From: Cloacibacterium sp. TD35
GTDB lineage: Bacteria; Bacteroidota; Bacteroidia; Flavobacteriales; Weeksellaceae
Reading direction: 5' to 3'
Assembly: GCF_028864635.1 (NCBI RefSeq)
Contig: NZ_CP104850.1
Span: 371,001 to 435,000 of the forward strand
Length of the DNA stretch: 64,000 bases
Shown: one piece after another, positions 1 to 15,505 of the stretch
How the letters are laid out: each line of letters begins with the position of its first letter
Position numbering within the stretch: the stretch's first letter is position 1
Made by a program: the position numbers and the translations under genes
The notes under the pieces: model-generated
What the model saw: only the letters and a program-made list of their open reading frames with translations
The model's database searches: none
Told to the model about the DNA's origin: nothing

Positions 1-1529
1 GCTTGAGCAATATCATAGATATCTACATAATTACCGAAAACTGCTGGCGTATTGACATCCGTACTTTCAATTGGTGTTCCTGTAAAACCTAAATAGGTAG
101 CATTGGGTAAGGCATCACGCATATATTTGGCAAAACCGTACACGATTTTTTTACCAATTACATTTCCGTTCTCATCCTTATCATCAACCGTTTTCGCACT
201 AAAACCATACTGTGTACGGTGGGCTTCATCGGCAATTACAATAATATTTTCTCTGGTAGATAAAGTTTCAAAAACGTTTCCTTCTTCCGGTTGAAATTTT
301 TGTATCGTCGTGAAAATTACCCCTCCAGAATTTACCTTCAATAAGTCTTTCAATTGCTTACGATCCATCGCTTGAACAGGATCTTGACGCAATAATTGTT
401 TCGAAGCCGCAAATGTGTCAAATAATTGATCGTCTAAATCATTACGGTCGGTTATTACTAAAACCGTTGGATTATCTAATGCCAATACAATTTTCCCTGT
501 ATAGAACACCATAGACAAAGATTTACCCGAACCTTGTGTATGCCAAACCACACCCCCTTTTCGGTCACCTTCAGGTTGGTTTTTCACGCCTGGTAAACCG
601 TAGCTTTCTGGGGATTCTTTTACTAGATAATCTGAAGTTTGCTTTGAGATAAATCCAGAAGCTCTTTTTGTAGATTCTACCGCACGATTTACGGCATAAT
701 ATTGATGATAGGCTGCTAATTTCTTTACCGTTTGTACAGTAACAATTCCATCAGCGTCTTCTTTTTTAAATTTTTCGAAAACCACAAAATGTCTGACCAA
801 ATCCAACAATACGCTTGGTTGCAACATTCCTTTAATCAATGTTTCTAATTGGCTGATTTGTTTAGAAGCTTCGTTGATACCATCTGTAGTTTTCCAAGCC
901 ATAAAACGGCTCAAACCTGCCGAAATGGTTCCTGCTTTTGCTTCCAAACCATCAGAAATAACCGAAAAAGCATTGAAAGTAAACAATGATGAGATCATTG
1001 TTTTGTAGGTTTCTATTTGGCGGAAGGCAGACTGAATGGTGGTTTTATCATCCGTAGCGTTCTTTAATTCAATCACAACCAATGGTAAGCCATTGACAAA
1101 CAGAATAATGTCTGGTCTTTTATTGACTCCGTTTTCTATGATTGTGAATTGATTGACTACTAAAAATTCGTTGTGTAACGGATTTTCGAAATCAATTAAA
1201 AACACACGATCCCCTCGTTCCTGTCCATTCACCCGTTTGGTCACCGGAATACCTTCTGTCAATAAACGATGAAAGGTTTCGTTATTGGATAACACATCAG
1301 GCGAAGCAATACGCAAAATTTGCTTTACAGCATCTTGTTGTGCATCTACAGGAATATTAGGATTTATACGGCGAACCGCATTTTCCAATCGTTGTTTTAG
1401 CACCACTTCTTCAAATGATGTTCTTTCCAGATTTCCTGCATCAGGAGCTAAATGAACGCCATTGATATAATTATATCCCTGGTGTTTTAATAATGTTATA
1501 GCGAGTTGTTCGATTTCGTTTTCGGTCAT
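1..1529 (-). CDS. hsdR: Type I restriction endonuclease subunit R (HsdR), N-terminal ~509 residues, cut by the window edge
   Basis: This is the motor and nuclease subunit of a type I restriction enzyme: it translocates DNA using ATP and cleaves unmodified DNA in complex with HsdM and HsdS. Reading the minus strand from an ATG at 1529 gives an open frame to the window edge. A PD-(D/E)xK nuclease domain is visible (D140, then ELK with E154 and K156), followed by the QxxxY motif at 171-175 that is typical of HsdR. Next come the helicase Walker A HTQGSGKS (330-337) and the DEAH box (434-437). The C-terminal half lies outside the window. It begins 9 bases after the HerA-type gene and is probably the last gene of the same transcript. 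Because it has no stop in the window it is easily missed. Confidence 0.95.
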   Translation of the reverse strand, partial: MTENEIEQLAITLLKHQGYNYINGVHLAPDAGNLERTSFEEVVLKQRLENAVRRINPNIPVDAQQDAVKQILRIASPDVLSNNETFHRLLTEGIPVTKRVNGQERGDRVFLIDFENPLHNEFLVVNQFTIIENGVNKRPDIILFVNGLPLVVIELKNATDDKTTIQSAFRQIETYKTMISSLFTFNAFSVISDGLEAKAGTISAGLSRFMAWKTTDGINEASKQISQLETLIKGMLQPSVLLDLVRHFVVFEKFKKEDADGIVTVQTVKKLAAYHQYYAVNRAVESTKRASGFISKQTSDYLVKESPESYGLPGVKNQPEGDRKGGVVWHTQGSGKSLSMVFYTGKIVLALDNPTVLVITDRNDLDDQLFDTFAASKQLLRQDPVQAMDRKQLKDLLKVNSGGVIFTTIQKFQPEEGNVFETLSTRENIIVIADEAHRTQYGFSAKTVDDKDENGNVIGKKIVYGFAKYMRDALPNATYLGFTGTPIESTDVNTPAVFGNYVDIYDIAQ

Positions 1530-1538
1530 GGTACAATA

Positions 1539-3659
1539 TTATTTTTCTGATTCTCCTTCACTGTCATTTTCTCCTAACCAACGGCTAACTGTTTGTTCGT
1601 ATGGTATTATTTCATCACCTAACCAATTTTCAATATATCTAGGGTTATGACTGTTAGGAGTTGGATAAACATCATCAATTCTAACTTGTATAGGTGCACG
1701 TACACAATCACCTGTGATAATTGCATGTTGCTGTGGAATAACTGGTAACTGGTCTAAAATATCGGCATTAGCACTAGAAACTAAACCACGAATATATTTT
1801 TGATCTTCTGGATTTTGTAGACGATGAATAATGAATGAATTACATTGCGATAAAACTGTTTTTGATAATTCAGATGGTCTTTGACTACTCACAATTAATG
1901 AAATTCCATATTTTCTCCCTTCTCTTGCTATTCTTTCAAACACAGTTTTAGCTACTGAATATTTATTCTCAGCAATATAATTTTGAGCTTCCTCTAAAAC
2001 TATGACAATGGGATATTTTCCTCTGTCCGCAGGAACAAAATATGAAACAAACTCCAATATAATTCTTCCTAATAATGCTGTAACCGTTTCCAATACTTCA
2101 AATGGAAGTTGAGAAACATCTATAATATTTACTTGATGGGCTCTCGTTTTATCATAGACTGTAGAAGTATCATTATATTTCTTAATAAAATGTTCTTCTG
2201 TTTCTTGTGAAAAAACATTATTATAATCTCCTAAAAGAAAAGCTAGAAATTGTGGTAAGACATTTTTATTTATTTCTTCTGTATTCTTTAACATCAAAGG
2301 AATTGCCATTCTTTTATCGTTTAAAAAACTGTTCATTCTTAAACGTAAAGTAGAGATAAATTCATTAAGCCTCGCGTTTCCAGAACCTTCATTTTTTATA
2401 GCTGCATCTAAAAATTTAGTACACAATTCTTGATAACTAAAATATATTGGTAAATCTATATTTTGAGAGCTTGTAATTTGTGTTTCTGTAGCTTCTTCCA
2501 TCAATACATTTAAACGATCTTGAATATTTCCTATGATTGGCGTTTGTAATGCAGCATTATTAAAATTTATTTCTGCTCCTAAATTTGATACTAAGTCAGC
2601 CAGTTCATTATCAAAAGGTCTTATAGCTTCTGCAATATTTAAGATTTCATTATTTACCAACCACTTCCATCTACCAAAATCTTGATATCCTGTTCTTTTC
2701 TTTATATCTTCATTTGAAAATGTTCTTATACTCTCCAAATCAGCTGTTAAATTTAAAGGAAGAACCAATCTAGCAATACTTTCTTCACTATTTTTTGCTA
2801 AACCAATTGCACTATTTAATAACGGAGCTTGAGTAGCATCACTTGGATTTAATAAAGCTCTAAAATCTGACCAATTCATTAACCAATAAGGAACCTGAAC
2901 ATTATCTTCACCACCATAATAGTTTGCATTAATTAATTTCAATTCTTCCTTAGTCTCAGGTGTCATCTTTTCAAGAATTTCATCATTAGGTAAAAAGGCA
3001 TCTTTATATTCTCCATTGGTATCGAAAATTACAATATGTGCATTTTTTAACGAACCACCATTGTAATCATATTTGAAAAGATTTCTAAGGATTGAAGTCA
3101 ATGTACAAGATTTACCTGAACCTGTATTACCTAGAATTGCAGCATGCTTAACAAAAAATTGATCTGGTGAAATCTTTACCTGATAATCAGAAAATGCTGG
3201 TGATGTTCCAACAGGAAGATAAAAATCTTTTTCAAATTCTATTTTATCCTTGTCGATCTTATCATCAAAAATATGCTGTAAATCTTTTTCAGTAACGTAC
3301 CAAACTGGATTATCTAATGTTGGAAAGTTATATACGCCTTGAATAAATTTCTCGCTATTCCCATTTTTTGAAATTGTACCCAACATCGTAGCCGAAATAT
3401 ATCGAGCGGATGTTGGTAAAGATATTGAAGTTGAATTCTTACCAAATTCAACCTCTTCTTTCATTGTTACACGGGTAATTAATGCAACCACTCGATCTGC
3501 ACCTACCGGTATAATCAAATAGGAATTAATACGAGCTATTTCATAAACATCCAAAACTCCACTTTTATATGTTCCTCTAAGGTCTTCCTCAATTTTAATA
3601 AAAACTCTAAAATTATCTACTGAAAGAACTCTACCTATAATTCTATTGTTACTACTCAT
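1539..3659 (-). CDS. HerA-type (DUF87) ATPase, partner of the SIR2 gene in a defence pair
   Basis: This 706-residue protein belongs to the HerA/FtsK-like hexameric ATPases. An N-terminal beta-rich HAS-barrel-like region (about 1-110) precedes the ATPase core, with Walker A GNTGSGKS at 177-184 and Walker B VIVLEEAQ ending near 559. A sensor-like SSQRPSELSKT follows. HerA proteins are DNA translocases. When paired with SIR2 they form a described antiphage module in which the two proteins make a large complex that depletes NAD. The start lies 18 bases after the SIR2 stop, which indicates co-transcription. The gene is noticeably more AT-rich than hsdM, suggesting a separate origin. Family assignment is firm; the defence role rests on the known pair. 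Confidence 0.88.
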   Translation of the reverse strand: MSSNNRIIGRVLSVDNFRVFIKIEEDLRGTYKSGVLDVYEIARINSYLIIPVGADRVVALITRVTMKEEVEFGKNSTSISLPTSARYISATMLGTISKNGNSEKFIQGVYNFPTLDNPVWYVTEKDLQHIFDDKIDKDKIEFEKDFYLPVGTSPAFSDYQVKISPDQFFVKHAAILGNTGSGKSCTLTSILRNLFKYDYNGGSLKNAHIVIFDTNGEYKDAFLPNDEILEKMTPETKEELKLINANYYGGEDNVQVPYWLMNWSDFRALLNPSDATQAPLLNSAIGLAKNSEESIARLVLPLNLTADLESIRTFSNEDIKKRTGYQDFGRWKWLVNNEILNIAEAIRPFDNELADLVSNLGAEINFNNAALQTPIIGNIQDRLNVLMEEATETQITSSQNIDLPIYFSYQELCTKFLDAAIKNEGSGNARLNEFISTLRLRMNSFLNDKRMAIPLMLKNTEEINKNVLPQFLAFLLGDYNNVFSQETEEHFIKKYNDTSTVYDKTRAHQVNIIDVSQLPFEVLETVTALLGRIILEFVSYFVPADRGKYPIVIVLEEAQNYIAENKYSVAKTVFERIAREGRKYGISLIVSSQRPSELSKTVLSQCNSFIIHRLQNPEDQKYIRGLVSSANADILDQLPVIPQQHAIITGDCVRAPIQVRIDDVYPTPNSHNPRYIENWLGDEIIPYEQTVSRWLGENDSEGESEK

Positions 3660-3677
3660 AAAAGGCTGTTTTACAAA

Positions 3678-4967
3678 TTAAAAAGGTAAATCATCGGGAG
3701 CATCTGAATCTTGTTTAGTATTCGAATCTGATTCTACTATTTCATCTTGCGTAATAATATCATTTTCTTGAACATCTTGATCATTCTTTTTGGTAGGATA
3801 AATTTTTTCCATTGTTTCCGCCACATAAACTATTTCATCCTCTTCATATAAATCAGGCATAATTTTATCTACAAAACCTACAAAGGTTGATTGATCTGCA
3901 ACTGTCTGATCTAAAATAATAATTCTTCTATCCCCCAAAGCCTTTAATTTTTCTATTTCTGATTTAGGATCAGCTGTTGGAGCAAAGTTGGCTATAATTA
4001 AAGTAAAAGAAGGAATAGATAATGCTTGCTTAATAATATCATTTATATGCTCATCATAAAAAGAATATCCTACACAAATCAACACTGATTGTGGCTGATT
4101 AATAGCTTGAGAAAATTGTCTGAATAATTCCGAGTATGGTAAATCAAGCGTGAAAGATTTTTTACTTACACATGGATAAATCATAATTTCATTATTTTCA
4201 TCAATAGTAAAATTATCATTTAATGGAATCTCTTTAATTCCGTAAGTATTGGATACATTAGGTGGTGTAGAAACCCAAGATAATGAACCATGCATTTTAT
4301 AATATCTTAAGACCTTTTCTGCTCTATGTACTTTACCTATTGCACTTTGCCCAGGGTAATACAAATCGTAGTCATATACTTCTGGTCTAAAGAATCTGTT
4401 ATGTACTCCCATAAAACCATTTATATAGTGCACTCCTAAATTATCTAAAGCATAATCAAATGCCATATCATAATTAGTTGTAAAGAGGTTTGCTCTTCTT
4501 AGATGAACAGGTCTTTGTAACAGTTTCTTGACTAATACCTCATGATAATGATATCTGTTTTTCTGAAGCTTTGAATCAGATGTATAATATTCATTAATGG
4601 TTGTTTTATTCGTATCACATTGTTGAAACAACCACTGTTGCATTTTAGTAATTGATTTATTTATATCACAAACACATGTACCTTTTTTCTCTCCAAGATA
4701 TCTATCTGCTTGTAAACAATTGATTAAATCTTCAAAAGAAGGCTCTGCATCTTCTCCAAAATAACGAGTTATTTCAGTTGAACATTGATCTTTTAATGAT
4801 TGGGGAATTGTTCTAATTACAGGAGCTCCTAAATGAAAACTTGAACCGGCACCGAATAAGAAACTAACATTTTCTAATTCAAGATATTTTTTAACTTTTA
4901 GTTTAATACTTTCAATTGTTTCTGTCATGATTTGTTTAATGGATTTCTTAGCTTTGGTTAATAGCAT
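3678..4967 (-). CDS. SIR2-family (SIR2_2-like) NAD-binding protein, effector of SIR2-HerA defence
   Basis: This 429-residue protein has the sirtuin-like NAD site: GAGSS at 39-43, TTNYD at 163-167 (Asn165) and the catalytic-type His in MHGSL (His226). Further on, GYSFYDEH near 302-309 is typical of bacterial SIR2-like domains of defence systems. In such systems the domain usually hydrolyses NAD rather than deacetylating proteins. The tail (about 370-429) is acidic and low in complexity, and could contact the HerA ring. An alternative start at Met14 would remove a Lys-rich leader. It sits 36 bases after hsdS and 18 before the HerA gene, so the pair is inserted inside the hsd operon. NADase activity is inferred from the family. 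Confidence 0.87.
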   Translation of the reverse strand: MLLTKAKKSIKQIMTETIESIKLKVKKYLELENVSFLFGAGSSFHLGAPVIRTIPQSLKDQCSTEITRYFGEDAEPSFEDLINCLQADRYLGEKKGTCVCDINKSITKMQQWLFQQCDTNKTTINEYYTSDSKLQKNRYHYHEVLVKKLLQRPVHLRRANLFTTNYDMAFDYALDNLGVHYINGFMGVHNRFFRPEVYDYDLYYPGQSAIGKVHRAEKVLRYYKMHGSLSWVSTPPNVSNTYGIKEIPLNDNFTIDENNEIMIYPCVSKKSFTLDLPYSELFRQFSQAINQPQSVLICVGYSFYDEHINDIIKQALSIPSFTLIIANFAPTADPKSEIEKLKALGDRRIIILDQTVADQSTFVGFVDKIMPDLYEEDEIVYVAETMEKIYPTKKNDQDVQENDIITQDEIVESDSNTKQDSDAPDDLPF

Positions 4968-5003: not shown

Positions 5004-6161
5004 TTATAACTTCACCCGCATCTCGCCACTCATTAACTTAGGCAATAAGGTATCGCGAAGTTGGGTTAGGGTTTGGATTTGCTGTTGATTAGCTCCAATC
5101 TTATTAAAATACTCTTTAACAAGTTCATGAAACTGATGAATCACCTCAATATTAGGTTTTTTAAACTTTAAATCCATTAAATGTGGTACTTTAATACTTG
5201 GTTGTACTCCGCCAATATCAAGGTTTAAAATATCTTCTTTGTTGATTTTTAAGAAAAGATAAATGAAATATGGAGAAATATTATCAGAACGTAAACCAAT
5301 TAAATTTTGAGCGATACACCCAATATTTGATGTAAAAATTGAAAAGACGCCAATTGTACCTACTGTAGAAACAATTACATCATTTACTTTTAAATGTTTT
5401 CTAAACCAAGAATTATATGTTTCCTCAACAACATACTTTCTGATAACATTATAATTAACTAAGCAATCAGATGTATTAATTGCATTCACCTCTATTAATG
5501 GATATGCTGTTTTATAATCTACAGTTGGTGGTGTTTTACCTCTATTATCTACAACTAAATCTATTATTGAACCTAATGAAACTTCCTTCCAATCCTCTTT
5601 CGCATCCACTATAAACCACTGACGGAATAATGTTTCCGCCAATGCCTCTAAGGTTTGGTTTTGTTGGTGTAATAAGTCGATTTTATCATCCAAACTCGAC
5701 AATACCGATGCAATGGCTTTTTGCTCGGGAAGTGGGGGAAGTTGGATTTCAAAATTTCTAATAGCATCTTTATCGCCTCTTGGCATTTTCGCTCCTTTAG
5801 ATGTCAGAACTGTATATTCTGTAAATTCAGGATTACATAAAATATAGTAAAGAAATTTTGAAATAATATTTTCTTTAGCTCTAAAAGTTAAAACATCCTG
5901 AGAAACAGTACCGTCAAATTTAGCGTGCCATACTTTTTTGAAATAAGTTCTGATGTTTGAAAATAATATATCATTCTCTACAAAAGCATTTACTGTATTT
6001 GTTGTAGGCAATTTCTCAGCATTTTGAACTCCACCAAAATCATTGATCATATTTTCTGTTGAAATATAATTTTCTAATGTTGCATTTTCGATAGGTGTCT
6101 TTGTTGAAATAATATCACTAATATCCCCTAATTGAACTTCTTTCCACTTATTCTCCATCAT
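5004..6161 (-). CDS. hsdS: Type I restriction-modification specificity subunit S
   Basis: HsdS reads the bipartite DNA target for both methylation and cleavage. The 385 residues show the standard layout. Target recognition domain 1 (about 1-140) is followed by a conserved spacer containing [20 protein letters not shown] and a coiled coil. Domain 2 begins at WKEVSLGSI (about 190), and the distal helix ends in [16 protein letters not shown]. Its start overlaps the end of hsdM by 14 bases, implying coupled translation. Both recognition domains are more AT-rich than the conserved spacer and than hsdM, consistent with the usual domain swapping of HsdS. The recognised sequence cannot be read from the protein. 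Confidence 0.93.
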
Positions 6162-7698
6162 TCGTCAATTCAATTTTTAACAAATTTTCAGCAATCATTG
6201 CATTCAATTCCGCTTCTTTGGCTAATTGTTCTTCCAAAGTTGCTTTCAGGGAAGTAAAACGCTCTACAAAGTTGAAATCGTCTTCTTCATCCGGTAAACC
6301 TACATAACGCCCAGGTGTTAAGACATAATCCAACTCTGCAACTTTAGACACCGGCACCGAAGCACAGAAACCAGCTACATCTTCGTATTGCCCATCGACA
6401 TTACGCCAATTATGATAAGTAGAAGCAATTAAGTCGATATCCTCTTTACTCAGCTCACGGTTTCTACGGTTGATGAGATGCCCTAAATTACGCGCATCAA
6501 TAAACAAGATTTCGTTTTCGGTATTACGGAATTTGGCATTCGGTACTTTCTTACGGCGCATAAACCATAAGGCCGCAGGAATTTGAGTATTCAGGAACAA
6601 CTTGGCTGGTAAGTTCACAATACAGTCAATCAAACCTTCTTCGATTAATTTTTTACGGATCTCGCCTTCACCTGAAGTTTTAGAGGTTAAGGCTCCTTTT
6701 GCCAATACCACACCTGCTTGCCCTGTTGGTGCTAAGTGATGGATGAAATGTTGCAACCAACCAAAGTTGGCATTCCCTACGGGAGGTGTACCAAACTGCC
6801 AACGCGCATCGTTACGCAATAAATCGCCCGACCAATCACTCACATTAAACGGAGGATTGGCAATGATATAATCGGCTTTTAAATCTTTATGTGCATCGTT
6901 CAAAAACGAACCTTCTGAGTTCCATTTTACGCCCGTAGAATCAATCCCACGAATGGCTAAATTCATCTTCGCCAAACGCCAAGTGGTTTGGTTGGATTCT
7001 TGTCCGTAAATCGAGATATCATCAATTCTTCCCTGATGGTCTTCCACAAACTTTTCCGACTGCACAAACATACCACCCGAACCACAACACGGATCGAAAA
7101 CACGGCCTTTATAAGGTTCTAGCATTTCTACCAATAACTCTACTACCGAACGTGGCGTGTAGAACTGTCCACCTTTTTGACCTTCAGCCAAAGCAAACTG
7201 ACCTAAGAAATATTCGAAAACATGTCCTAACACATCGGCAGAACGCTCCTGCGTATCGCCAAAGTCAATATTCCCAATCAAATCTATTAAATCGCCTAAG
7301 CTTGTAGGATCCAAATTTTGTTTGGCATATACTTTTGGTAAAATACCTTTTAATTGTGGGTTTTCCGCTTCAATAGCATCCATTCCGTCATCTACAATTT
7401 TACCAATAGTTGTTTGCTTTGCACTAGATTGTAAAAACGACCAACGCGCTGAAGGTGGCACAAAGAATACGTTTTCTGCCGTGTATTCTTCTCTGTCTTC
7501 CGGATCAGCTCCTTGATCAATCTGTGCGGTTAAATCAGCATGTAATTTCTCAAATGCAATTGATATATATTTTAAGAAAATCAATCCAAGAACCACATCT
7601 TTATACTCCGCAGCATTAATATTTTTACGCAACTTATCCGCTGCTTTCCATAAGGTTTTCTCTAAAGGTTCTTCAACCGTTTGTTTTTTCTTAGCCAT
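6148..7698 (-). CDS. hsdM: Type I restriction-modification DNA adenine methyltransferase (HsdM)
   Basis: This 516-residue N6-adenine methyltransferase has an N-terminal HsdM helical domain (about 1-150). The SAM-binding motif I is [10 protein letters not shown] (about 202-211) and the catalytic motif IV is NPPFNVSDW (about 281-289). Both are intact, unlike the methylase-like part of the fusion gene upstream. Length is normal for HsdM. It is separated by 82 AT-rich bases from the response-regulator gene and overlaps hsdS by 14 bases. A TAAATTTG sequence 31 bases before the ATG (7729-7736, minus strand) could be a local -7 promoter element, so hsdM may be transcribed both from the upstream unit and on its own. 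Confidence 0.95.
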
Positions 7699-7780: not shown

Positions 7781-8962
7781 TTAGATTTTAATACATTTTA
7801 CCCTATTTTTCAAAAGATTAGTGCCATTGGGAGTATATTCTTCTATTTCAACTTGCACAGGTAATTCTTCAATAAGAGAATGATTGGTAACTAAATGTGG
7901 TGGTATGAAAATATTATCTCCCCCCTCATCTGGTTTAAAAAAAGCGAAGCCTTTATGGGGATTAATATTGATGACCTTACCACAAATGTAGACTTCGTTA
8001 TGTTTAGCCTCCTCAGTTTCTGTTTCCACTTTTACCCAATTCTCTTTTTTAGGATTTGAATCTACATACATTTTAAACCATATCAAGACATCTAATAGTT
8101 GAAAAGAAATACTTTTCAAAAGATAAGTAGTTCTTATGGTCTTAACATAATTATCAATTTCTGACCTATGTGAGCCAGCTTGTGTTATAGATAAAATACT
8201 GCGTAAGTATGAAGCAATCTGTTTCGGAAGATGTGTTTCTTGAAGATGCTTGTGTTGTTTGTATACAGCGTCGGTATTCTCATATTGGTCTTGACCAGCA
8301 AGGAAAATACTCGTTTGATTTAAAGCGACACTTGGTGTAACAAATTCAGAAGGCAGTAAATTGAATTTATTGAATGCTATAAAAAGGTCTTCGACTACTT
8401 TTCGAATAGCGTTGAAATAATTGTCAATGTTTGTATCATCATTGACTTTGAGTAGGTTCAAAATATCTTGACCTGCAAACTCGCCAATGTACTTTTCTGT
8501 ACATACGTCAAACACTCTTTTGTAATTGTGACGAATTTGAGTATCTTCCTGTTTTGCAGCAGCAGTCCTTATATCTGAAAACAGTCTGTCAATTTCCTCG
8601 TCACTACCTTTTTTGTAAACATTGGTAAAGGCCTTTTTGAAGGTTTTGTCTTCATAAGCTTCGGCTTGCCCTGTCAGTACAAATACTTCAAACTTCTTTT
8701 TAATTTGAAGTAATCTTTCTTTGGCTCTATGCACATTGTAGGTGTCTTCCGTTCCTTGGACATCATCTTCATTTTCAAAAAATTTAGCGTCTAATAGCAC
8801 GCCATCATAAAAAGGATAATTCCTTTCTAATTCATCCATGCCACTATTCAAAGACTTGAATGGAATCAGGTTTATGCCATTTCTTTTTGCACGGCCTTTA
8901 GTTCCAGTTAGTGTTTCATGCTCATCGTCTATCCACAATATATTATAAAATATGTCCTCCAT
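7781..8962 (-). CDS. Response regulator with unusual output: receiver, helical middle region and cold-shock-like C-terminus
   Basis: The first ~130 of 393 residues form a receiver domain with all catalytic residues: the acidic pair Asp12-Asp13, phosphoacceptor Asp58 in GVLLDAKF, Thr97 in VLTGQ, and Lys117 or Lys118. There is no DNA-binding HTH. A mostly helical region (about 150-310) follows; its IRKVVEDLF and later LRSILSITQAGSHR segments loosely recall DUF4145/HEPN helices, but an exact R(X4-6)H motif is absent. Residues 322-393 resemble a cold-shock/OB fold, with a GKV strand, KGFAFFKPDEGGDNIF and a terminal strand. The start is 2 bases after the stop of the kinase fusion, so the two are surely a cognate pair. 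The output role, RNA or single-stranded DNA binding, is inferred. Confidence 0.82.
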   Translation of the reverse strand: MEDIFYNILWIDDEHETLTGTKGRAKRNGINLIPFKSLNSGMDELERNYPFYDGVLLDAKFFENEDDVQGTEDTYNVHRAKERLLQIKKKFEVFVLTGQAEAYEDKTFKKAFTNVYKKGSDEEIDRLFSDIRTAAAKQEDTQIRHNYKRVFDVCTEKYIGEFAGQDILNLLKVNDDTNIDNYFNAIRKVVEDLFIAFNKFNLLPSEFVTPSVALNQTSIFLAGQDQYENTDAVYKQHKHLQETHLPKQIASYLRSILSITQAGSHRSEIDNYVKTIRTTYLLKSISFQLLDVLIWFKMYVDSNPKKENWVKVETETEEAKHNEVYICGKVININPHKGFAFFKPDEGGDNIFIPPHLVTNHSLIEELPVQVEIEEYTPNGTNLLKNRVKCIKI

Positions 8963-8964
8963 AA

Positions 8965-11430
8965 TTAATTAATCAATTTTATTGGAAATTGGAATTTGAA
9001 CTTCACCAAAAAGAATGGGTCTTCATTCAGTGAAAGTATCCAATCCGGGTTGTTAAAATCACTAGCAATTCTGTGTATATCATAACCACCTAAACCACTG
9101 CCATTGTTAGAATCGGCTGTCGAGTATTTGGTTATAAACTTCTCCCTGTCAAAATTCTTCGGAAAAGGTTTGCCGTTATTTCTGATTTCCATTACTAAAG
9201 AATCATCAACTTCGGTCAGTTCAATAATTACTTCGTTGCCTATAGCTTTTTTATCAAATGCATACTTATTGGCATTTGTGAGAATGTTATCCAGCAATGT
9301 TTTGAAAAGCGTTTTGTTAGCATAAATGCCTCTTTCTTTGAGTTTTTCACCTTTTAATAAAAACTTCTTTATTGTGAAGTGAAAGCCGTTATTAGACAGT
9401 TCGTTGACGGTACTATTAATATCTGACAGCGAAATAATTTGTTTTTCGTACTCGGACAATACAAGTCCGTTTTCACCCTTTTCAAGCACATCTGTAATGA
9501 AGTTTACATCACGCTTGATTTCCTTAAGGGCTGATAAAATATCAATATCATAGAAATCGGAAAATACTTTGTTCAATTCTTCAAAATCGTTCTTTTTCTT
9601 GGTTAAAAAATCCAACAAGTTGTCAGACCAATCCAAAATATTTTGTCTAGGTCTTCCCAAAGTATGCTTTAATGATGCAAATTCATTGAACTGCTTTATC
9701 GTCTTACCATGAACCAAGGCATTACGTTCTTCTTGCAAGCTTTTAATCTTATCAGATAACTCATTAATAACCTGAACTTTAGCACGCTGCTCTTCTAATG
9801 AAGGTAATTTAATTACTACCTCAAGTAAATCTTTCTGTCGAATAAAAGGTATAGTAGCTCCTAAACGGTAGGAATCTAATTGATGATTAACATATTCCGA
9901 CTGAAGCTCATTGATTAAATAAGCTTTATCAACAATTTCTTCATTAACTTTAAATGAAAAAATATCCTGACTTCTAAAAATAGGCTCATCTTTGAACTCA
10001 AAAAAAGTTGGCTTTAAAGAACGCCAACGCATAGCAAGCAGTAAGCATGATTCTGAGACAATATGAATGTCAGATCTCCTCAGTTCTGTCTCTTCCACAT
10101 TTGAAATATCAAGTGTAAAATCCACTTTATCGTCTTTTAAATCACGGATGCGAATTAATTTGCCTGATTCTGGTAAGTTTCCTCTTTGGCCTCTAACTAA
10201 CTCTAGAATATCACCTAGCTTTACTAATCTTTCGTTTTCTTCAAAAATGATTTCATTAAGAAAATATCTTGGTACGCTTAGGCTATATTCATTCGAAATG
10301 ATTTGTTCATTACTCACAAACCTAATAAACTCTGAATCAATTCTAGTATTATGTATTAGCTCACTGAGTTTATTATCATTTAGAATCTTTCCTTGACCAT
10401 CTTTTTCTTCAACAAATTCACTGGCATCAACAAAGCGAACCAATCCTGATTTTTTCTTATTTTTGTTAAGCATCAGAATCACAAGGGGAATTCCTGTATT
10501 TGATAATAATCCTCCTGGCAATGATATAATAGTATCTAATACATCTTGTTGAATCAATTCTCTTCTTAATTGCTTTTCATATCCTTCTCTAGACAAGAAA
10601 CCCAGTGGTAGTATAGATATTAAATTACCCTTAGAATCGAGAGATTCCAGTCCCCTTTCAATTAAAAACTGTTCAACTGAATTTACATTATGATAGTTTC
10701 TGTCAAATTTCATATTAAACGGTGGATGAGCAATAACTAGATCAAATTTTTCATTTGATGAAGGCCAATTCTTTGTAGAATCAACACATACATAATTTGA
10801 AAGACGAAGTTTATTATGCGCTAATAGACGAAGTGTTCCTAATGCCCAAGATTCCTCAGAGATTTCTTGACCTAAATAAGCTATTTCTTTGTCAAGACAC
10901 ACACCAAATGAAGCCAAGCCTGCAAAAGGATTAAAAACTTTGGCATCTTTTTTTAAATCAGCTAAACTAGACATTAAACGTGTTAACTCAACAGGTTGAA
11001 TAAATTCACCAGCATATCTGCCCTGAGATTTAGAAATTTTATACAAAATATCTTCAAAAAAACTTGGAAAATAATCAACTAGCATCTTTCTATCTAATTG
11101 AAAAAATTGAAATAAAAATATATCAAATGGTTGATTAAAAAGATTAGTCAATGAATTGTTAAGCGTATCAACAATTTGAATATATGCTTCCTTAGTCTGG
11201 GAATTTAAAACTGAATTAACAATGAGCGATTTTAATTTATTTAAGTCAAAATCATCTGTAAAAGAACCTTCATTTATTACACCATCTTTATATAATGATA
11301 TCAATAATAATGTAATCTGAACAGAGTCACTTGTATTGTTGAATTTTGAGTTATATCTAAATGAATTTAGAATACCTATAACTTTAAAAGATAACACATC
11401 AACTGGATTTGAATAAACTATATTTACCAT
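8965..11430 (-). CDS. HsdM-like methylase fold fused to an HsdS-like recognition domain and a histidine kinase
   Basis: Three modules are joined in 821 residues. Residues ~1-395 look like an N6-adenine methylase: motif I position NPFAGLASFG (167-176) and motif IV position AHPPF (234-238). Both depart from the HsdM consensus, most strikingly His in place of the catalytic Asn of NPPF. Residues ~400-560 resemble one HsdS target-recognition domain, starting at LVKLGDILELVRG and ending in LPSLEEQ plus a coiled coil. Residues ~570-821 are a histidine kinase: H-box-like SLKHTLGRP with His589, N-box LLDNILTNANKYA (712-724), G1-like NNGKPFP (751-757) and G2 GSGLGGYDI (777-785). No transmembrane segment is seen, so the sensor is cytosolic. 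It sits 2 bases before its response regulator. Domain calls are good; function is unproven. Confidence 0.85.
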   Translation of the reverse strand: MVNIVYSNPVDVLSFKVIGILNSFRYNSKFNNTSDSVQITLLLISLYKDGVINEGSFTDDFDLNKLKSLIVNSVLNSQTKEAYIQIVDTLNNSLTNLFNQPFDIFLFQFFQLDRKMLVDYFPSFFEDILYKISKSQGRYAGEFIQPVELTRLMSSLADLKKDAKVFNPFAGLASFGVCLDKEIAYLGQEISEESWALGTLRLLAHNKLRLSNYVCVDSTKNWPSSNEKFDLVIAHPPFNMKFDRNYHNVNSVEQFLIERGLESLDSKGNLISILPLGFLSREGYEKQLRRELIQQDVLDTIISLPGGLLSNTGIPLVILMLNKNKKKSGLVRFVDASEFVEEKDGQGKILNDNKLSELIHNTRIDSEFIRFVSNEQIISNEYSLSVPRYFLNEIIFEENERLVKLGDILELVRGQRGNLPESGKLIRIRDLKDDKVDFTLDISNVEETELRRSDIHIVSESCLLLAMRWRSLKPTFFEFKDEPIFRSQDIFSFKVNEEIVDKAYLINELQSEYVNHQLDSYRLGATIPFIRQKDLLEVVIKLPSLEEQRAKVQVINELSDKIKSLQEERNALVHGKTIKQFNEFASLKHTLGRPRQNILDWSDNLLDFLTKKKNDFEELNKVFSDFYDIDILSALKEIKRDVNFITDVLEKGENGLVLSEYEKQIISLSDINSTVNELSNNGFHFTIKKFLLKGEKLKERGIYANKTLFKTLLDNILTNANKYAFDKKAIGNEVIIELTEVDDSLVMEIRNNGKPFPKNFDREKFITKYSTADSNNGSGLGGYDIHRIASDFNNPDWILSLNEDPFFLVKFKFQFPIKLIN

Positions 11431-11457: not shown

Positions 11458-11482
11458 CAAATGTATTTTTAATTAGTGCACT
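11458..11482 (-). promoter_or_regulatory. Putative promoter and operator of the kinase-fusion operon
   Basis: On the minus strand TACATTTG (11458-11465) fits the Bacteroidetes -7 consensus TAnnTTTG and lies 27 bases before the ATG at 11430. Just upstream, at 11475-11482, is the perfect palindrome AGTGCACT, placed where a repressor would block the promoter. The WYL regulator gene ends 10 bases further on and is a natural candidate to bind it. No convincing -33 TTTG is present. Confidence 0.4.
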
Positions 11483-11491
11483 GAATCTGCA

Positions 11492-12490
11492 TTAATAATT
11501 ATTTTTCATCTTTTCAATTCTACTTTTCATCTTTTCCACAAAAGAAGCAGGTTCTAAAACCTGTAAACTTTCACCATAGGAAAGCAATAATGATTCTAAT
11601 TCATAATTAGGGATTACTTTTATTATAACACGATGTATATTGTCTTCAAACTTATAGGCTTGTGATGGATGTAGTGGTTTTGTTTTGATATAGGGAACTA
11701 AAGTTTCTGCAATTTTAATTTTTATGGTTTCCACTTTTGCTTCTGGAATGGATACCCCTACAATATCATCGAAATATTCATTAAAATCTATGTCACTTTT
11801 TTCATAGGTTTTATTGGTTTCCTTAATAGAAATAATTCTGTCTAAAGCCAAGTTTGTTAGTGTTTCGAAATTGGGAGACTTACCAAATAAAAACCAACGC
11901 TTGTTGAATTGTTTCAAATGATAAGGACTTAATTCGTAAGTTACACTATTTTCATTTTTAAACGTTTTGTATTCAATTGCAACTACTTTTTTGTAAATGA
12001 TAGCGTTGTATAACTCAGAGATAAAGGATTTGCCTTCTAAGTATTCGTTCTCTTCAAAACTCATCACCTTATCTGAGTTTTTATTTAGTTTGAATTCGGC
12101 ATCTAATCGTGTCCCTAACTCATCAATCCAATCATATTGTGGCATTCCTTTGAATCTACTCAAGGTAAGTAAAGCTTCTTTTAATTGAAAAGCTTCAGTT
12201 TCATTTAAAGGTTTATTTGATATAGAAAAGTTTGGATCTTCATAGCGGTAATACACTTTTCTACCTTCTTTTGTTTTTTCTAATTCAATTGACCACCCCT
12301 GTTCACTTTCCATGAATCGGATATCATCATACAATTGTCTTTTTTTAATTCCTTCTTGTTTACCTGTGAACTCGTAAATAGCATCATTACATGCATCTAC
12401 TAAATCTTCAATGGCAAATCTTTTACCAGGATTTCTAAAACACTTGTCTAATGTATTATATCGAATTTGAGCATGTTTATTAGTTGCCAT
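11492..12490 (-). CDS. WYL-domain transcriptional regulator of the defence operon
   Basis: This 332-residue protein has an N-terminal winged-helix-like region (about 1-75) and a WYL domain (about 150-225) with the characteristic HLKQFNKRWFLFGKSP and LDRIISI segments, plus a C-terminal WCX-like extension. WYL proteins such as BrxR/CapW act as ligand-sensing repressors of defence islands, and the WYL fold can bind nucleic-acid fragments or nucleotides. It is the first gene of the defence cluster, 61 bases upstream of the methylase-kinase fusion and on the same strand, so it most likely controls that operon and itself. Ligand and direction of control cannot be read from the sequence. Confidence 0.88.
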   Translation of the reverse strand: MATNKHAQIRYNTLDKCFRNPGKRFAIEDLVDACNDAIYEFTGKQEGIKKRQLYDDIRFMESEQGWSIELEKTKEGRKVYYRYEDPNFSISNKPLNETEAFQLKEALLTLSRFKGMPQYDWIDELGTRLDAEFKLNKNSDKVMSFEENEYLEGKSFISELYNAIIYKKVVAIEYKTFKNENSVTYELSPYHLKQFNKRWFLFGKSPNFETLTNLALDRIISIKETNKTYEKSDIDFNEYFDDIVGVSIPEAKVETIKIKIAETLVPYIKTKPLHPSQAYKFEDNIHRVIIKVIPNYELESLLLSYGESLQVLEPASFVEKMKSRIEKMKNNY

Positions 12491-12597: not shown

Positions 12598-13239
12598 TCA
12601 CTTTCTTTTGTCGGTAGAGTTTAGGTCGTAGCCGAAAAGATTGAACATTTCTCTCATTCGGGAGCGGAGCCTGTTTCCGTAGATGGATTCTATTTCTGCT
12701 GCAGAAAGATTGGTGGTGAGGTGTGTGATAAGTCCTTTTTCTTTGAACAGGTCATAGCGTGTGAGGAGGATTTCTGCCATTACATTGCAGTCGTTTCCGT
12801 AATACTTCGATGAGGTTTCAATGCCTAAATCGTCAAAGCAATAGACTTTGGCTTTTCGAGCATCGTGGGTGAAGTTTCCTTTGGAGTAGTTCTCTAGGAT
12901 TTGATAGCCCGACTGCATGAATTCTGAAACGATTTGGCGTGTGGAGACTATACCGAATTTGTTTTTGTTGCCTATGAATTTTTGCATGAGCTTGAATAAG
13001 GTGGTTTTTCCGCAACCGATAGGACCAGAAAGGAGAATTCCTTTTTGGAGGTCGAAGTCCATTTCTTTGGCCACTAAATCGTCTTGGAGCATCCATGCAA
13101 TGGTGGCGAAGACTATGGGTTTTTCTTCGTCTGGAATGAGGTAGTTTTTACCGATAAACTGGGAAGCGAATTTTTTGAATTCTGGAATGATTTTGTAATA
13201 ATCATAACGGGTTTCTATGGGTGGTGTAGGAAAGTTCAT
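12598..13239 (-). CDS. DnaC/IstB-like AAA+ ATPase of the mobile element
   Basis: This 213-residue single-domain AAA+ protein has Walker A GPIGCGKTT (about 70-78), Walker B VYCFDDLG (about 131-138), a sensor I region THLTTN and an arginine-finger candidate in RLRSRMREM. That pattern is typical of DnaC-like helicase loaders and IstB ATPases. Next to a DnaD-like gene and an integrase, a role in element replication or helicase loading is the best reading; an IstB-type transposition helper is less likely because no IstA transposase is seen. It starts with ATG immediately after a run of hexamer repeats, and ends 107 bases before the WYL gene. Confidence 0.75.
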   Translation of the reverse strand: MNFPTPPIETRYDYYKIIPEFKKFASQFIGKNYLIPDEEKPIVFATIAWMLQDDLVAKEMDFDLQKGILLSGPIGCGKTTLFKLMQKFIGNKNKFGIVSTRQIVSEFMQSGYQILENYSKGNFTHDARKAKVYCFDDLGIETSSKYYGNDCNVMAEILLTRYDLFKEKGLITHLTTNLSAAEIESIYGNRLRSRMREMFNLFGYDLNSTDKRK

Positions 13240-13244
13240 AGAGT

Positions 13245-13298
13245 GAGGTTGAGGTTAAGGTTAAGGTTAAGGTTGAGGCAGTGGTTGAGGTTGAGGTT
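13245..13298. repeat. Nine hexamer units of RAGGTT between the DnaD-like and DnaC-like genes
   Basis: Consecutive six-base units read GAGGTT twice, AAGGTT three times, GAGGCA, GTGGTT and GAGGTT twice on the plus strand. They fill the whole spacer and include the stop codon of the upstream gene. In the transcript (minus strand) the leader of the DnaC-like gene is therefore almost free of G and unstructured. Copy-number change by slippage is plausible but unproven. Confidence 0.85.
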
Positions 13299-14223
13299 AG
13301 AGGGGTTCTTTGTAGCTTTTATTGGTGGTGGCTTGGAGATTATTGCGTTTGCCTTCGGCTCCGCCGAAGCTTCGGTGATTTAAATTATCATTAAATTTTT
13401 TGGAGTTTTTGAGCCAATTGCGTGCAGCTGCTTCCCAATTTTTCATTTTGGATTTTCCACCCACGAGCCAGCCGTTGGATTCGTAGTGGTCAAAAAATCT
13501 TTCGGCTTCTGAAAGCGGTGTGTCTTTTTCTTCAAAAAAAAGTTTTACCTCAGCAAAGGTGGGTGGGATTTTGGGAGCTGATATTGGCGAAAGTTTCTTT
13601 TTGCCTCCATAATGATTATTTTTTTCGATATGAGTCGGCGAAAGCTTTGCGCTTTTCTTTTCGCGCAACTTTTCTTTTTCTTTAATTTTTTGAGATAGTG
13701 ATTTTGGGACAATTTCTTGGAAAGGAATTGCAGGTAAAAAAGCTTGTTTAAAATTTGAACTGGTCTCGGGTGTGGTAATACTATGTTTATTGTTTATATT
13801 GTTTATATAGTTTATAGAAGGCTCCAATGCTTGTTCAATACCTGTTCCGATTTTGATATGGTGCTGGTTCAATGCTTGTTCAGAGCTTGTTTGATTTTTA
13901 GCATGGTAGCTGTTCAAATTTTGTATTTCTGTATCTTCAAAATTGAATAGATTTACCATGCTTCCTTTGTAGGGATTGAATGAAGGTAAATATTCGATAT
14001 ATCCAAAATCTTGAAGGTCTTTGATGCACTTGTGGTAAGTACCGTAAGCTGCAATTTTACTGAGCTTCATCATTTCATGTCGTGAAATGCTTATTGGGTT
14101 CTGGAAGTGGTTGAGGTTCCAGAACTGAAATAAAGCAAGGTATAAGCTGATGTGTGTGGGGTTAAGGCGTGAGTCTTCGTGGATTTTTTCGTAAAATCCT
14201 GTAAGGTGGCGGATGTAGTTCAT
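13297..14223 (-). CDS. DnaD-like winged-helix replication protein of the mobile element
   Basis: The N-terminal ~110 of 308 residues form a winged-helix domain (LNPTHISLYLALFQFWN, then RHEMMKLSKIAAYGTYHKCI, then a YIEYLPSFNP wing) like those of phage and plasmid replication initiators. A low-complexity Lys/Ser/Asn-rich linker follows. A C-terminal segment near 225-285 (TFAEVKLFFEEK, FFDHYESNGW, MKNWEAAARNW) is shared by many phage-type replication proteins. The gene lies directly upstream of the DnaC-like ATPase, a common initiator plus loader arrangement. Near its 3' end the DNA carries a short GC-rich inverted repeat (13353-13369) that encodes SFGGAEG. The DnaD relationship is inferred from pattern rather than alignment. 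Confidence 0.62.
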   Translation of the reverse strand: MNYIRHLTGFYEKIHEDSRLNPTHISLYLALFQFWNLNHFQNPISISRHEMMKLSKIAAYGTYHKCIKDLQDFGYIEYLPSFNPYKGSMVNLFNFEDTEIQNLNSYHAKNQTSSEQALNQHHIKIGTGIEQALEPSINYINNINNKHSITTPETSSNFKQAFLPAIPFQEIVPKSLSQKIKEKEKLREKKSAKLSPTHIEKNNHYGGKKKLSPISAPKIPPTFAEVKLFFEEKDTPLSEAERFFDHYESNGWLVGGKSKMKNWEAAARNWLKNSKKFNDNLNHRSFGGAEGKRNNLQATTNKSYKEPL

Positions 14224-14229
14224 TTTTAT

Positions 14230-14257
14230 GTTGGGAGTTGGATGTTGGGTGATGGAT
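14230..14257. repeat. Four heptamer units (GTTGGAT-like) in the leader of the DnaD-like gene
   Basis: The plus strand reads GTTGGGA, GTTGGAT, GTTGGGT and GATGGAT in direct succession between the HTH gene stop and the DnaD-like gene start. Like the hexamer runs in the two neighbouring spacers it gives a C/A-rich, G-poor transcript leader. Closely related heptamers occur inside menE at 30731-30758. Confidence 0.8.
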
Positions 14258-14259
14258 GA

Positions 14260-14520
14260 TTAATTTTTGGACTGGAGAAGCTTTTCAATATCCTCATAGT
14301 TGTAGTATAGTGTACCTCCTACTTTAGAGTAACGGAGAGTGCCATTAATCCTCATGTTTTGGAGAGTTCCTGAGGAAATTTTGAGGAGTGCTTTTACATC
14401 TGCGCTTCGGAGCCATTGTTTTTGGCTGTTTGACTTTGGGAGGAGTAAGTTTTTGAGTTCTTGTAATAGATCATTTTTGAACTCTTGAAGGTCTTCTTTG
14501 GTAACAATTTCTAGTGCCAT
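14260..14520 (-). CDS. Small helix-turn-helix protein, excisionase-like (HTH_17 type)
   Basis: This 86-residue protein has a short N-terminal helix (EDLQEFKNDLLQELKNLL) that may mediate dimerisation. It is followed by a MerR/excisionase-type HTH with WLRSADVKALLKISSGTLQN and a wing RYSKVGGTLYYNYEDIEKLL. Such genes are standard companions of Bacteroidetes integrases and RteC regulators, and act as excision factors or regulators of mobile elements. It lies between rteC and the DnaD-like gene, on the same strand. Excision activity is not demonstrated. Confidence 0.78.
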   Translation of the reverse strand: MALEIVTKEDLQEFKNDLLQELKNLLLPKSNSQKQWLRSADVKALLKISSGTLQNMRINGTLRYSKVGGTLYYNYEDIEKLLQSKN

Positions 14521-14533
14521 AATTAAAAAGTTT

Positions 14534-14553
14534 AGGTTAAGGTTAAGGTTAAG
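14534..14553. repeat. Three AGGTTA hexamers in the leader of the small HTH gene
   Basis: AGGTTA is repeated three times, followed by a partial unit, 13 bases upstream of the start codon of the HTH gene. It is the same type of unit as the nine-copy array at 13245-13298. Confidence 0.85.
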
Positions 14554-14562
14554 TTGGTTTAG

Positions 14563-14594
14563 AATTCCGGCAATGATTATTCATCCCCGGAATT
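14563..14594. repeat. Inverted repeat AATTCCGG/CCGGAATT in the rteC-HTH spacer
   Basis: Perfect 8-base arms (14563-14570 and 14587-14594) are separated by 16 bases. It lies between rteC and the HTH gene and could be an operator for an element regulator, though no binding protein is identified. Confidence 0.5.
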
Positions 14595-14629
14595 GTTTAC
14601 GGCGAAATTGTGCTGTTTTGGTAAGATTT

Positions 14630-14656
14630 ATTCACAACGGAGACTGCGTTGTGAAT
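14630..14656. repeat. Perfect 10-base hairpin ATTCACAACG/CGTTGTGAAT at the 3' end of rteC
   Basis: The arms 14630-14639 and 14647-14656 flank a seven-base loop, just after the rteC stop on the minus strand. On the plus strand a T-run follows, so as a simple terminator it would suit plus-strand transcription. On the minus strand it may instead be an attenuator or binding site. Confidence 0.5.
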
Positions 14657-14662
14657 GATTTT

Positions 14663-15505
14663 TTAGAAATTTTCGTCTGTTTCCTCCATTCTTAACAGAA
14701 GTTTATCTTTGAGGGTATTAATAAATTTGGCTCTGTCGTCTTTTCGGGTTCTGATGTCTAGGAACATACGCCTGTATTGTCCTAAATCTACATTGAAGGT
14801 TTCTTGGAATTGGTCTGCAATGTCTTTAACATTAGCGGTTCCGTTGTTGAAAACGCCTTCGGTTTGGAGGGCGTAGATGAGTTCAATAAGGGCGACTTTT
14901 GGAGCCGTCCATTGGAGTTTGGAGGTTTGGGTTGAAAGATAGCAGTTTAATGCTTTTTCAAGTTCTAGAATCTTTTTATCAATGTAAATAGACAAAAGGT
15001 CGTTTGCCATGATTAAAGCGACTTTGTAATCATGTGTAGTGGAGAATTTTGAGTCTAACTCAAAATTATAATTGTTGAGGTTGATTTTAAAATCTACATT
15101 TCCTCTCAAAAAATATTTTTCATCTAGGAAAGTGCTATTCGTACGGTAGTATTGATAAAAATCTAAATTCTTATCAAAGAAATCTTTTATGTTAGCCTGT
15201 TCAGCCTCATAATATTTTTTGAGGATTGATGCACCTCCTAGTGGGGCTTGGGAAGCAATTCTGTAAATAGCCATGTGATAATATAGCTTGGAAGTGAATT
15301 GCGGTTTTATGGATTTAAAAAATAAAATTTCTTCATGCTTAGATTTAAATTTATGCTTAATGACCATTTTTTTGAGCTGCTCTAGAGTTTTGAGAATGAC
15401 TTTGATAATTTCTTCGGATTTTTGAAGAATGTTATCAAACTCAGATTCTAAAAATTCAATTTGTCCATTAAGCTCTCTTAAGAGATCAATAGATTTAGTT
15501 TCCAC
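14663..15505 (-). CDS. RteC-domain protein, regulator of conjugative-transposon excision
   Basis: This 280-residue RteC-family protein has the conserved stretch FFKSIKPQFTSKLYYHMAIY (about 63-82) and a helical C-terminus with WTAPKVALIELIYALQ and the final FLDIRTRKDDRAKFI block. In CTnDOT-type elements RteC activates the excision operon. Here it is located between the integrase and the small HTH gene, as expected. The start codon is GTG (15503-15505 on the minus strand). No RteA or RteB two-component genes are visible, so the element is a reduced or different type of integrative element. Confidence 0.88.
   Translation of the reverse strand: METKSIDLLRELNGQIEFLESEFDNILQKSEEIIKVILKTLEQLKKMVIKHKFKSKHEEILFFKSIKPQFTSKLYYHMAIYRIASQAPLGGASILKKYYEAEQANIKDFFDKNLDFYQYYRTNSTFLDEKYFLRGNVDFKINLNNYNFELDSKFSTTHDYKVALIMANDLLSIYIDKKILELEKALNCYLSTQTSKLQWTAPKVALIELIYALQTEGVFNNGTANVKDIADQFQETFNVDLGQYRRMFLDIRTRKDDRAKFINTLKDKLLLRMEETDENF

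What the first reader, a model, noticed from the sequence alone, without database searches (positions are those of the whole stretch)
7781..11430. A two-component pair whose sensor is a methylase-like/target-recognition/histidine-kinase fusion
The 821-residue protein joins an HsdM-like fold, one HsdS-like recognition domain and a complete histidine-kinase module. The next gene, 2 bases away, is a response regulator with all phosphotransfer residues but no DNA-binding HTH. Histidine kinases normally carry membrane or PAS sensors; here the sensing half looks built to read DNA sequence and SAM or methylation status. Placed in a defence operon, this suggests a phosphorelay triggered by foreign DNA. 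Domain content is seen in the sequence; the mechanism is inference. I know of the phosphorelay defence system Detocs, but not of this architecture.
Basis: partly seen in the sequence, partly recalled or inferred. Interest (0 to 1): 0.93.

Follow-up and report, generated by a model that had tools for sequence, protein, structure and literature searches.

The report
Pseudo-methylase sensor kinase guarding restriction operons
Beside a bacterial DNA-restriction operon sits a sensor kinase built from an altered copy of the restriction system's own DNA-reading enzyme, next to a response regulator; the pair recurs across Bacteroidota and would likely sense interference with restriction and switch on backup defences, although no signalling has been tested.

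Summary
Window 8965-11430 (-) encodes an HsdM-like domain, one HsdS-like recognition domain and a histidine kinase core; two bases on, 7781-8962 encodes a receiver, an orphan helical domain and a cold-shock domain. Of 31 loci fetched, 28 show both genes, adjacent on one strand in 28 of 28. His589 is kept in 28 of 28 fusions; HsdM and HsdS lie nearby in 19 of 28. The window operon is a complete type I system with SIR2 and HerA genes and a WYL regulator.

Two results change the interpretation. Motif IV of the fusion's methylase is canonical NPP[FY] in only 5 of 28, against 19 of 19 HsdM proteins of the same loci (window: HPPF). The fusion co-varies with its regulator, not with HsdM, and its recognition domain shows no match to the partner HsdS. 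It therefore probably does not read the sites that the operon marks as self. I favour a guard: a pseudo-methylase whose DNA cleft gates a kinase, triggered by anti-restriction proteins or loss of restriction. This is inferred and untested. The closest printed precedent found, HEF_HK/Response_reg_2, is a different family.

The parts
8965..11430 (-). fusion sensor kinase, 821 aa: HsdM-like, HsdS-like recognition domain, histidine kinase
10255..11076 (-). N6_Mtase domain, residues 119-392; motif IV is HPPF (residues 235-238, 10717-10728)
9796..10230 (-). single HsdS-like target-recognition domain, residues 401-545; an HsdS-type spacer helix follows
   Evidence: Methylase_S 477-571; 5ybb_D and 3okg_A
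8968..9795 (-). spacer helix, DHp-like H-box (His589 at 9664-9666) and HATPase_c kinase core, residues 546-821
   Evidence: HATPase_c; kinase structures 9m08, 4i5s; conserved H/N/G1/G2 residues
7781..8962 (-). response regulator, 393 aa
8555..8962 (-). receiver domain, residues 1-136 (Asp58 at 8789-8791)
   Evidence: profile hit to 3jte; Foldseek receivers; D13, D58, K118 invariant in 27
7988..8554 (-). orphan helical middle domain, residues 137-325, invariant R187, E191, H265
   Evidence: alignments; no known family found
7784..7987 (-). C-terminal cold-shock/OB domain, residues 326-393, absent from short forms
   Evidence: weak Pfam S1CSD-TOTE-2, below cut-off; Foldseek CspA-like matches
11477..11491 (.). 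inverted repeat TGCA-N7-TGCA before the fusion gene; probable WYL operator (inferred)
   Evidence: 17 of 27 upstream stretches; 1 copy in the window, 43 in the genome
11492..12490 (-). WYL regulator
   Evidence: Pfam WYL and WCX
6148..7698 (-). HsdM, motif IV NPPF
   Evidence: Pfam
5004..6161 (-). HsdS
   Evidence: Pfam Methylase_S, 2 stretches
3678..4967 (-). SIR2-family defence protein
   Evidence: PADLOC SIR2 4.6e-88
1539..3659 (-). HerA helicase
   Evidence: PADLOC HerA 8.9e-170
1..1529 (-). 5' part of HsdR; the whole gene is G000:C1:369320-372529, 1069 aa, crossing the window start
   Evidence: 96% identical to the annotated HsdR of a Myroides plasmid

Best explanation
The two genes encode a sensor kinase with a type I methyltransferase-like front half and an adjacent response regulator, a predicted two-component pair that travels with type I restriction operons in Bacteroidota and would most likely act as a guard that senses interference with restriction and signals to the operon's backup defences. 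Shown: the domains, the conserved kinase and receiver residues, the strict pairing, co-variation of the pair, decay of the methylase catalytic motif, and independence from the partner HsdM and from the partner's recognition domains. Inferred: the methylase/recognition half dimerises like a half-HsdS enzyme, with the kinase's dimerisation helices continuing the spacer helix, so occupancy of the DNA cleft sets kinase activity. Inferred: the trigger is an anti-restriction DNA mimic or a DNA state that appears when restriction fails. Inferred: His589 passes phosphate to Asp58, and the regulator acts through its orphan helical domain (and, in long forms, its cold-shock domain) on co-encoded effectors such as SIR2-HerA, not through DNA binding. 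Transcription of the operon is probably set separately by the WYL protein at the TGCA-N7-TGCA repeat.
For: Pairing 28 of 28, same strand, gap -35 to 12 bases in 27 (in the 28th, L005, the fusion gene is split). H589 28 of 28; N719, N751, G753, G779, G781 27 of 27. Motif IV NPP[FY] in 5 of 28 fusions against 19 of 19 HsdM. Pair distances correlate (rho 0.49-0.64, n=27, p=0.0005); kinase-HsdM rho -0.12 and regulator-HsdM 0.06 (n=19). Recognition domain not matched to partner HsdS. HsdM and HsdS in 19 of 28; other defence genes nearby: DUF3644, GmrSD, McrBC, PLD/UvrD, NACHT. Best Foldseek match of the fusion model is 7eew, a methyltransferase crystallised with the DNA mimic Ocr. Precedent: PrrC is held by a type I system and released when phage T4 deploys Stp (PMC3710099, passages).
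Against: No phosphotransfer, DNA-binding or infection data. 101 of 120 near sequences keep the motif IV Asn, so catalysis may matter in that clade. The recognition domain is well conserved in near relatives (74-82% between OWN and L002-L005, against 44-48% for the methylase half), which would also fit reading a fixed DNA site. The kinase part has a weak correlation with HsdS (rho 0.23, p 0.02). 9 of 28 loci show no HsdM/HsdS pair in the stretch fetched (some end soon after the regulator), and L042 is a type III CRISPR locus with no type I genes seen, so there is nothing of type I to guard there. The structure models are poor for the kinase half and the regulator (mean pLDDT 64.6 and 60.0).
Confidence: 0.4

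Rival explanations
1. Foreign-DNA sensor: the recognition domain binds a fixed bipartite site; unmethylated copies on incoming DNA would turn the kinase on and the regulator would activate effectors.
For: Recognition domain and methylase fold retained; 101 of 120 near sequences keep the motif IV Asn; recognition domain 74-82% conserved in near relatives.
Against: Recognition domain uncoupled from the HsdS that marks self; motif IV canonical in only 5 of 28, HPPF in the window, so self could hardly be protected at the fusion's own site there.
Confidence: 0.25
2. Expression or establishment controller: the pair would sense SAM or methylation competence and delay HsdR or effector activity when the mobile operon enters a new host.
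For: Likely mobile DNA (RteC gene beside the operon; a Myroides plasmid copy); motif II Glu is 120 of 120 in near sequences and 23 of 28 in the loci; WYL adjacent in 17 of 28; R-M control was also proposed for HEF_HK/Response_reg_2 (PMC8011034, discussion).
Against: Regulator has no recognised DNA-binding HTH; no co-variation with HsdM (rho 0.06); motif I is lost in L039-L041; the WYL protein and its likely operator already offer transcriptional control.
Confidence: 0.2
3. Epigenetic switch: in members with NPP[FY] the fusion would be an active methylase that also reports its own methylation state.
For: NPPF or NPPY in 94 of 120 near sequences.
Against: Window has HPPF; of the 28 loci fusions only 5 have NPP[FY].
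Confidence: 0.1

Closest known systems
HEF_HK / Response_reg_2 (PF19191/PF19192; PMC8011034)
   Same: soluble kinase-like and receiver-like pair, adjacent genes, enriched beside restriction-modification genes
   Different: that kinase mostly has an N-terminal HATPase_c_3 (paraMORC-like) and sits mostly with type II C5 methylases; a term search of its text found no N6_Mtase, fusion or fused; our proteins do not match either Pfam model
Type I methyltransferases, incl. 7eew and paired half-S forms (PMC3874165, passages)
   Same: HsdM fold plus recognition domain; paired identical recognition domains read symmetric bipartite sites
   Different: here a histidine kinase is appended and motif IV is often lost
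PrrC with its type Ic system PrrI (PMC3710099, passages)
   Same: backup defence tied to a type I system and released by anti-restriction
   Different: PrrC is an ABC-HEPN nuclease; no phosphorelay
Detocs (recalled)
   Same: phosphorelay in phage defence
   Different: no methylase or recognition domain in its kinase (recalled, not tested here)
CapK/CapS (PMC13373217, passages)
   Same: GHKL kinase encoded upstream of immune operons
   Different: HTH-STAS-GHKL kinase acting on a Ser of a STAS-wHTH repressor

Membership tests
two-component system | kinase with H, N, G1, G2 boxes | tested here: met
   120 of 120 aligned near sequences; H589 28 of 28 and N719, N751, G753, G779, G781 27 of 27 in loci
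two-component system | receiver with acidic pair, phospho-Asp, Thr/Ser, Lys | tested here: met
   D13, D58, K118 invariant, D12 at least 90%, T or S at 97, in 27 aligned
two-component system | adjacent cognate genes | tested here: met
   28 of 28 loci that show both genes
two-component system | His to Asp phosphotransfer | not testable with these tools
   needs an assay
type I N6 methyltransferase (HsdM) | HsdM fold | tested here: met
type I N6 methyltransferase (HsdM) | catalytic motif IV [ND]PP[FY] | tested here: not met
   HPPF in the window protein
HEF_HK / Response_reg_2 | match to PF19191 and PF19192 | tested here: not met
   neither listed for the window proteins at E up to 1, nor for 27 regulators at 0.1 or 36 fusions at 0.001
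MADS | NCBIfam MAD2/MAD5 cut-offs | tested here: not met
   HsdM 62 of 720 bits; HsdS 35 and fusion 22 of 400 bits
Detocs | Detocs gene set | tested here: inconclusive
   no Detocs name among the PADLOC hits shown (only the best 25 of 86 shown for the fusion); I did not check that the library holds Detocs models
PrrC-type guard | ABC-HEPN nuclease | tested here: not met
   no such domain in the ten proteins scanned; HsdR was not in that scan
PrrC-type guard | activation by anti-restriction | not testable with these tools
   needs an experiment

The most novel reading that the evidence does not exclude
Bacteria have turned a copy of their own type I methyltransferase into an integrated decoy wired to a phosphorelay: phage or plasmid anti-restriction proteins that jam the restriction enzyme's DNA cleft also hit the decoy, whose kinase then fires co-encoded abortive effectors; the cassette is plug-in and is exchanged between restriction, McrBC and even CRISPR loci.
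Probability: 0.25. Interest if true: 0.92.

Novelty: new variant of a known kind. Interest (0 to 1): 0.78.

Why it matters
It would be a histidine kinase whose sensor is a DNA methyltransferase/recognition module, placing two-component signalling inside restriction-modification. It makes a concrete question testable: can bacteria sense the inhibition of restriction and escalate to abortive effectors? The pair is easy to find by sequence, recurs in many genomes, and has clear residues to mutate.

Tried and rejected
HEPN output domain: the regulator's middle domain looked DUF4145-like by eye (R...E...H), but comparison with one DUF4145-bearing sequence gave probability 0.1, Pfam gave nothing convincing and the PDB profile search gave one hit at E 0.28. 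No support; not pursued.

TGCA-N7-TGCA as the fusion's own recognition site: attractive, because a half-S dimer would read a symmetric bipartite site, but it follows WYL adjacency better. It is exact upstream of the fusion in 15 of the 17 loci with WYL adjacent, 16 with L055, whose fusion start was called too far upstream; L005 has one mismatch. The WYL HTH is better conserved than the rest in many site-bearing loci, for example 0.67 against 0.37 in L002, but not in L032, L031 or L035. Against the WYL reading: L034 and L035 carry the site without an adjacent WYL; and of 30 WYL loci, the 5 beside a fusion all have a site but only 2 of the other 25 do (L061, L067; most of the 25 are WYLs below 42% identity). 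A WYL operator is more likely; not proven, and a fusion site is not excluded.

Phage origin: one search gave one partial kinase match in viral contigs and none (one pattern set each). MT835483 is an unverified 'Bacteriophage sp.' scaffold with the pair and a type I operon; it may be bacterial.

Detocs, MADS and HEF_HK as names for the system: see membership test. One search found no solved structure for the WYL protein at E <= 0.01.

One search shows only methyltransferases because that domain fills the list; the absence of kinase rows there means nothing.
Full report
What is there. The window is part of a 2.6 Mb single-contig genome; the closest named relative found is Cloacibacterium normanense (L001). 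On the minus strand an operon runs WYL regulator (11492-12490), fusion kinase (8965-11430), response regulator (7781-8962), HsdM (6148-7698), HsdS (5004-6161), SIR2 (3678-4967), HerA (1539-3659) and HsdR, which crosses the window start (G000:C1:369320-372529, 1069 aa). It is therefore a complete type I restriction gene set with SIR2 and HerA genes between HsdS and HsdR and a two-component-like pair in front.

The regulator. D13, D58 and K118 are invariant in 27 aligned relatives, with T or S at 97. The middle domain has invariant R187, E191 and H265 and matched no known family. The cold-shock domain occurs in long forms; short regulators of about 300 aa lack it. Its Pfam matches are below cut-off in the window protein. 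The regulator model is poor (mean pLDDT 60.0), but receiver and cold-shock parts find their kinds.

Distribution. 789 proteins match the fusion query and 778 the regulator query at E <= 0.001; the best 120 of each are listed. All 120 fusion rows (window in place of P0001) were used for conservation counts. With a profile of 27 regulators, genomes with a match at E <= 1e-12 number 13 of 395 in the phylum sample, and, read from the tables, 14 of 395 in the class sample and 7 of 296 in the order sample. At E <= 0.001 searches give 26 of 395 and 31 of 296, but many of those rows are receiver-only or cold-shock-only partial matches. Named hosts seen include Sphingobacterium, Flavobacterium, Olivibacter, Lacihabitans and Weeksella, Myroides and Aliifodinibius. 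Genomes of other phyla were not searched.

Pairing and context. I examined 31 loci, chosen as the stronger regulator or fusion hits; weaker or partial hits were not fetched. Three were dropped from the pair counts: L044 (fusion in fragments), L048 and L053 (regulator at a contig end, so that the fusion is cut or missing). OWN and L001 are close relatives, and so are L002, L003 and L005, and L045 and L046, so loci are not all independent. In the remaining 28, the regulator directly follows the fusion on the same strand in 28; the gap is -35 to 12 bases in 27, and in L005 the fusion gene is split. HsdM and HsdS both lie in the fetched stretch in 19 of 28; in 16 of these HsdM is the next gene after the regulator (my reading). 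A WYL gene lies in the stretch in 21 of 28, within 100 bases of the fusion in 17. Other genes nearby include GmrSD in L034 and L035, McrBC and a reverse transcriptase in L056, NACHT in L043, DUF3644 in L001, AAA/PLD/UvrD in L040, a HerA-like protein in L003 and Cas10, Csm, Csx1-like and Cas6 genes in L042.

Kinase kept, methylase decayed. In the 28 fusions H589 is kept in 28, and N719, N751, G753, G779 and G781 in 27 of 27 (L005's first piece ends before them). Motif IV is NPP[FY] in 5 of 28, or NPP[FYWL] in 8 of 28 plus one SPPF. In the 19 HsdM proteins of the same loci it is NPPF or NPPY in 19 of 19. The HsdM test took the first such motif anywhere in the protein, while the fusion test read an aligned column, so the fusion test is the stricter one. 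In the near clade the decay is mild: N235 in 101 of 120, S in 11, H in 6 including the window, T in 2. Motif I is lost in some distant members (L039-L041).

A plug-in pair. Distances of the fusion's parts correlate with the regulator (rho 0.49 kinase, 0.61 recognition, 0.64 methylase; n=27, p=0.0005, the floor of 2000 permutations). Kinase against HsdM gives -0.12 (p 0.93) and regulator against HsdM 0.06 (p 0.23) (n=19). Kinase against HsdS gives a weak 0.23 (p 0.02), and regulator against WYL 0.28 (p 0.05, n=20). The window and L001 have 99-100% identical fusions but HsdM at 81% and HsdS at 34%. The window and the Myroides plasmid have HsdM at 96% but fusion at 23-33% and regulator at 28%. 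At DNA level the strong similarity to the plasmid begins at window 7711, just past the regulator, and runs through HsdM at 89%. So a module boundary lies right after the regulator, and the pair is a unit that is combined with different restriction cores.

Recognition domain not tied to HsdS. For 19 loci, the BLAST score of the fusion's recognition domain against its own HsdS ranks on average 10.4 of 19, with 10 expected by chance. Its distance correlation with HsdS is 0.17 (p 0.09). If the fusion discriminated foreign from self by methylation, its site should be one that the operon methylates. This weakens the foreign-DNA reading and leaves a guard of the restriction machinery as my preferred mechanism. 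The evidence is indirect: specificity was judged from sequence similarity, not measured. PrrC gives a precedent for a type I-linked backup released by anti-restriction (PMC3710099, passages). Symmetric bipartite sites of paired identical recognition domains are listed in PMC3874165 (passages).

Promoter element. An exact TGCA-N7-TGCA lies in the 110 bases before the fusion in 17 of 27 loci (L056 was left out because the contig begins inside the gene). It occurs once in the 64 kb window and 43 times in the 2.6 Mb genome, so about 0.002 would be expected per 110 bases. In 15 of the 17 loci with an adjacent WYL it is exact, 16 with L055. I read it as a WYL operator; results against that are told under Tried and rejected.

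Comparison with print. Ten searches were made of open PMC papers; aimed at the architecture. Judged from titles, abstract starts and the passages read, none described a methylase/recognition/histidine-kinase fusion; subscription papers and preprints are not held. The nearest is PMC8011034 (outline, parts 1-3 of 7 of the text, the discussion, and passages): a soluble kinase-like/receiver-like pair beside restriction genes, but with different domains and Pfam models that our proteins do not match. PMC12839542, PMC12255303, PMC7159879, PMC7641849, PMC13373217, PMC11229360, PMC3710099 and PMC3874165 were read by passages only.

Verdict. The architecture and pairing are solid. That it signals is predicted from conserved residues. 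The trigger and output are inference; guard 0.4, foreign-DNA reader 0.25, expression controller 0.2, epigenetic switch 0.1.

Noticed in passing
L042:6759-9974 (G066): A 763-aa protein whose C-terminal part matches the fusion profile over the end of the recognition domain and the kinase (probability 97.6), followed by a related regulator, lies inside a type III CRISPR locus between Csm/RAMP genes and Csx1-like and Cas6 genes.
   Followed up: partly
window 11477-11491 and upstream of the fusion in relatives: Conserved inverted repeat TGCA-N7-TGCA before the fusion gene, probably a WYL operator.
   Followed up: partly
window 7988-8554: Regulator middle domain with invariant R187, E191, H265 and no known family found.
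   Followed up: partly
window 1539-4967: SIR2 and HerA genes sit between HsdS and HsdR; the close relative L001 has a DUF3644 gene there instead.
   Followed up: partly
window 12598-15505: A DnaC-like AAA protein and a 308-aa unknown precede WYL here and in L001 and L037, and precede the fusion directly in L034; RteC of conjugative transposons lies further upstream at 14663-15505.
   Followed up: partly
L056:3403-9077 (G289): The pair is followed by an AAA protein, McrBC and a reverse transcriptase.
   Followed up: no
L044 (G660), L005: Fusion gene broken into pieces; in L044 the regulator also has a stop before its cold-shock part, in L005 it is full length.
   Followed up: no
L031 (MT835483): An unverified record named Bacteriophage sp. 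from human faeces carries WYL, fusion, regulator, HsdM, HsdS and HsdR.
   Followed up: partly
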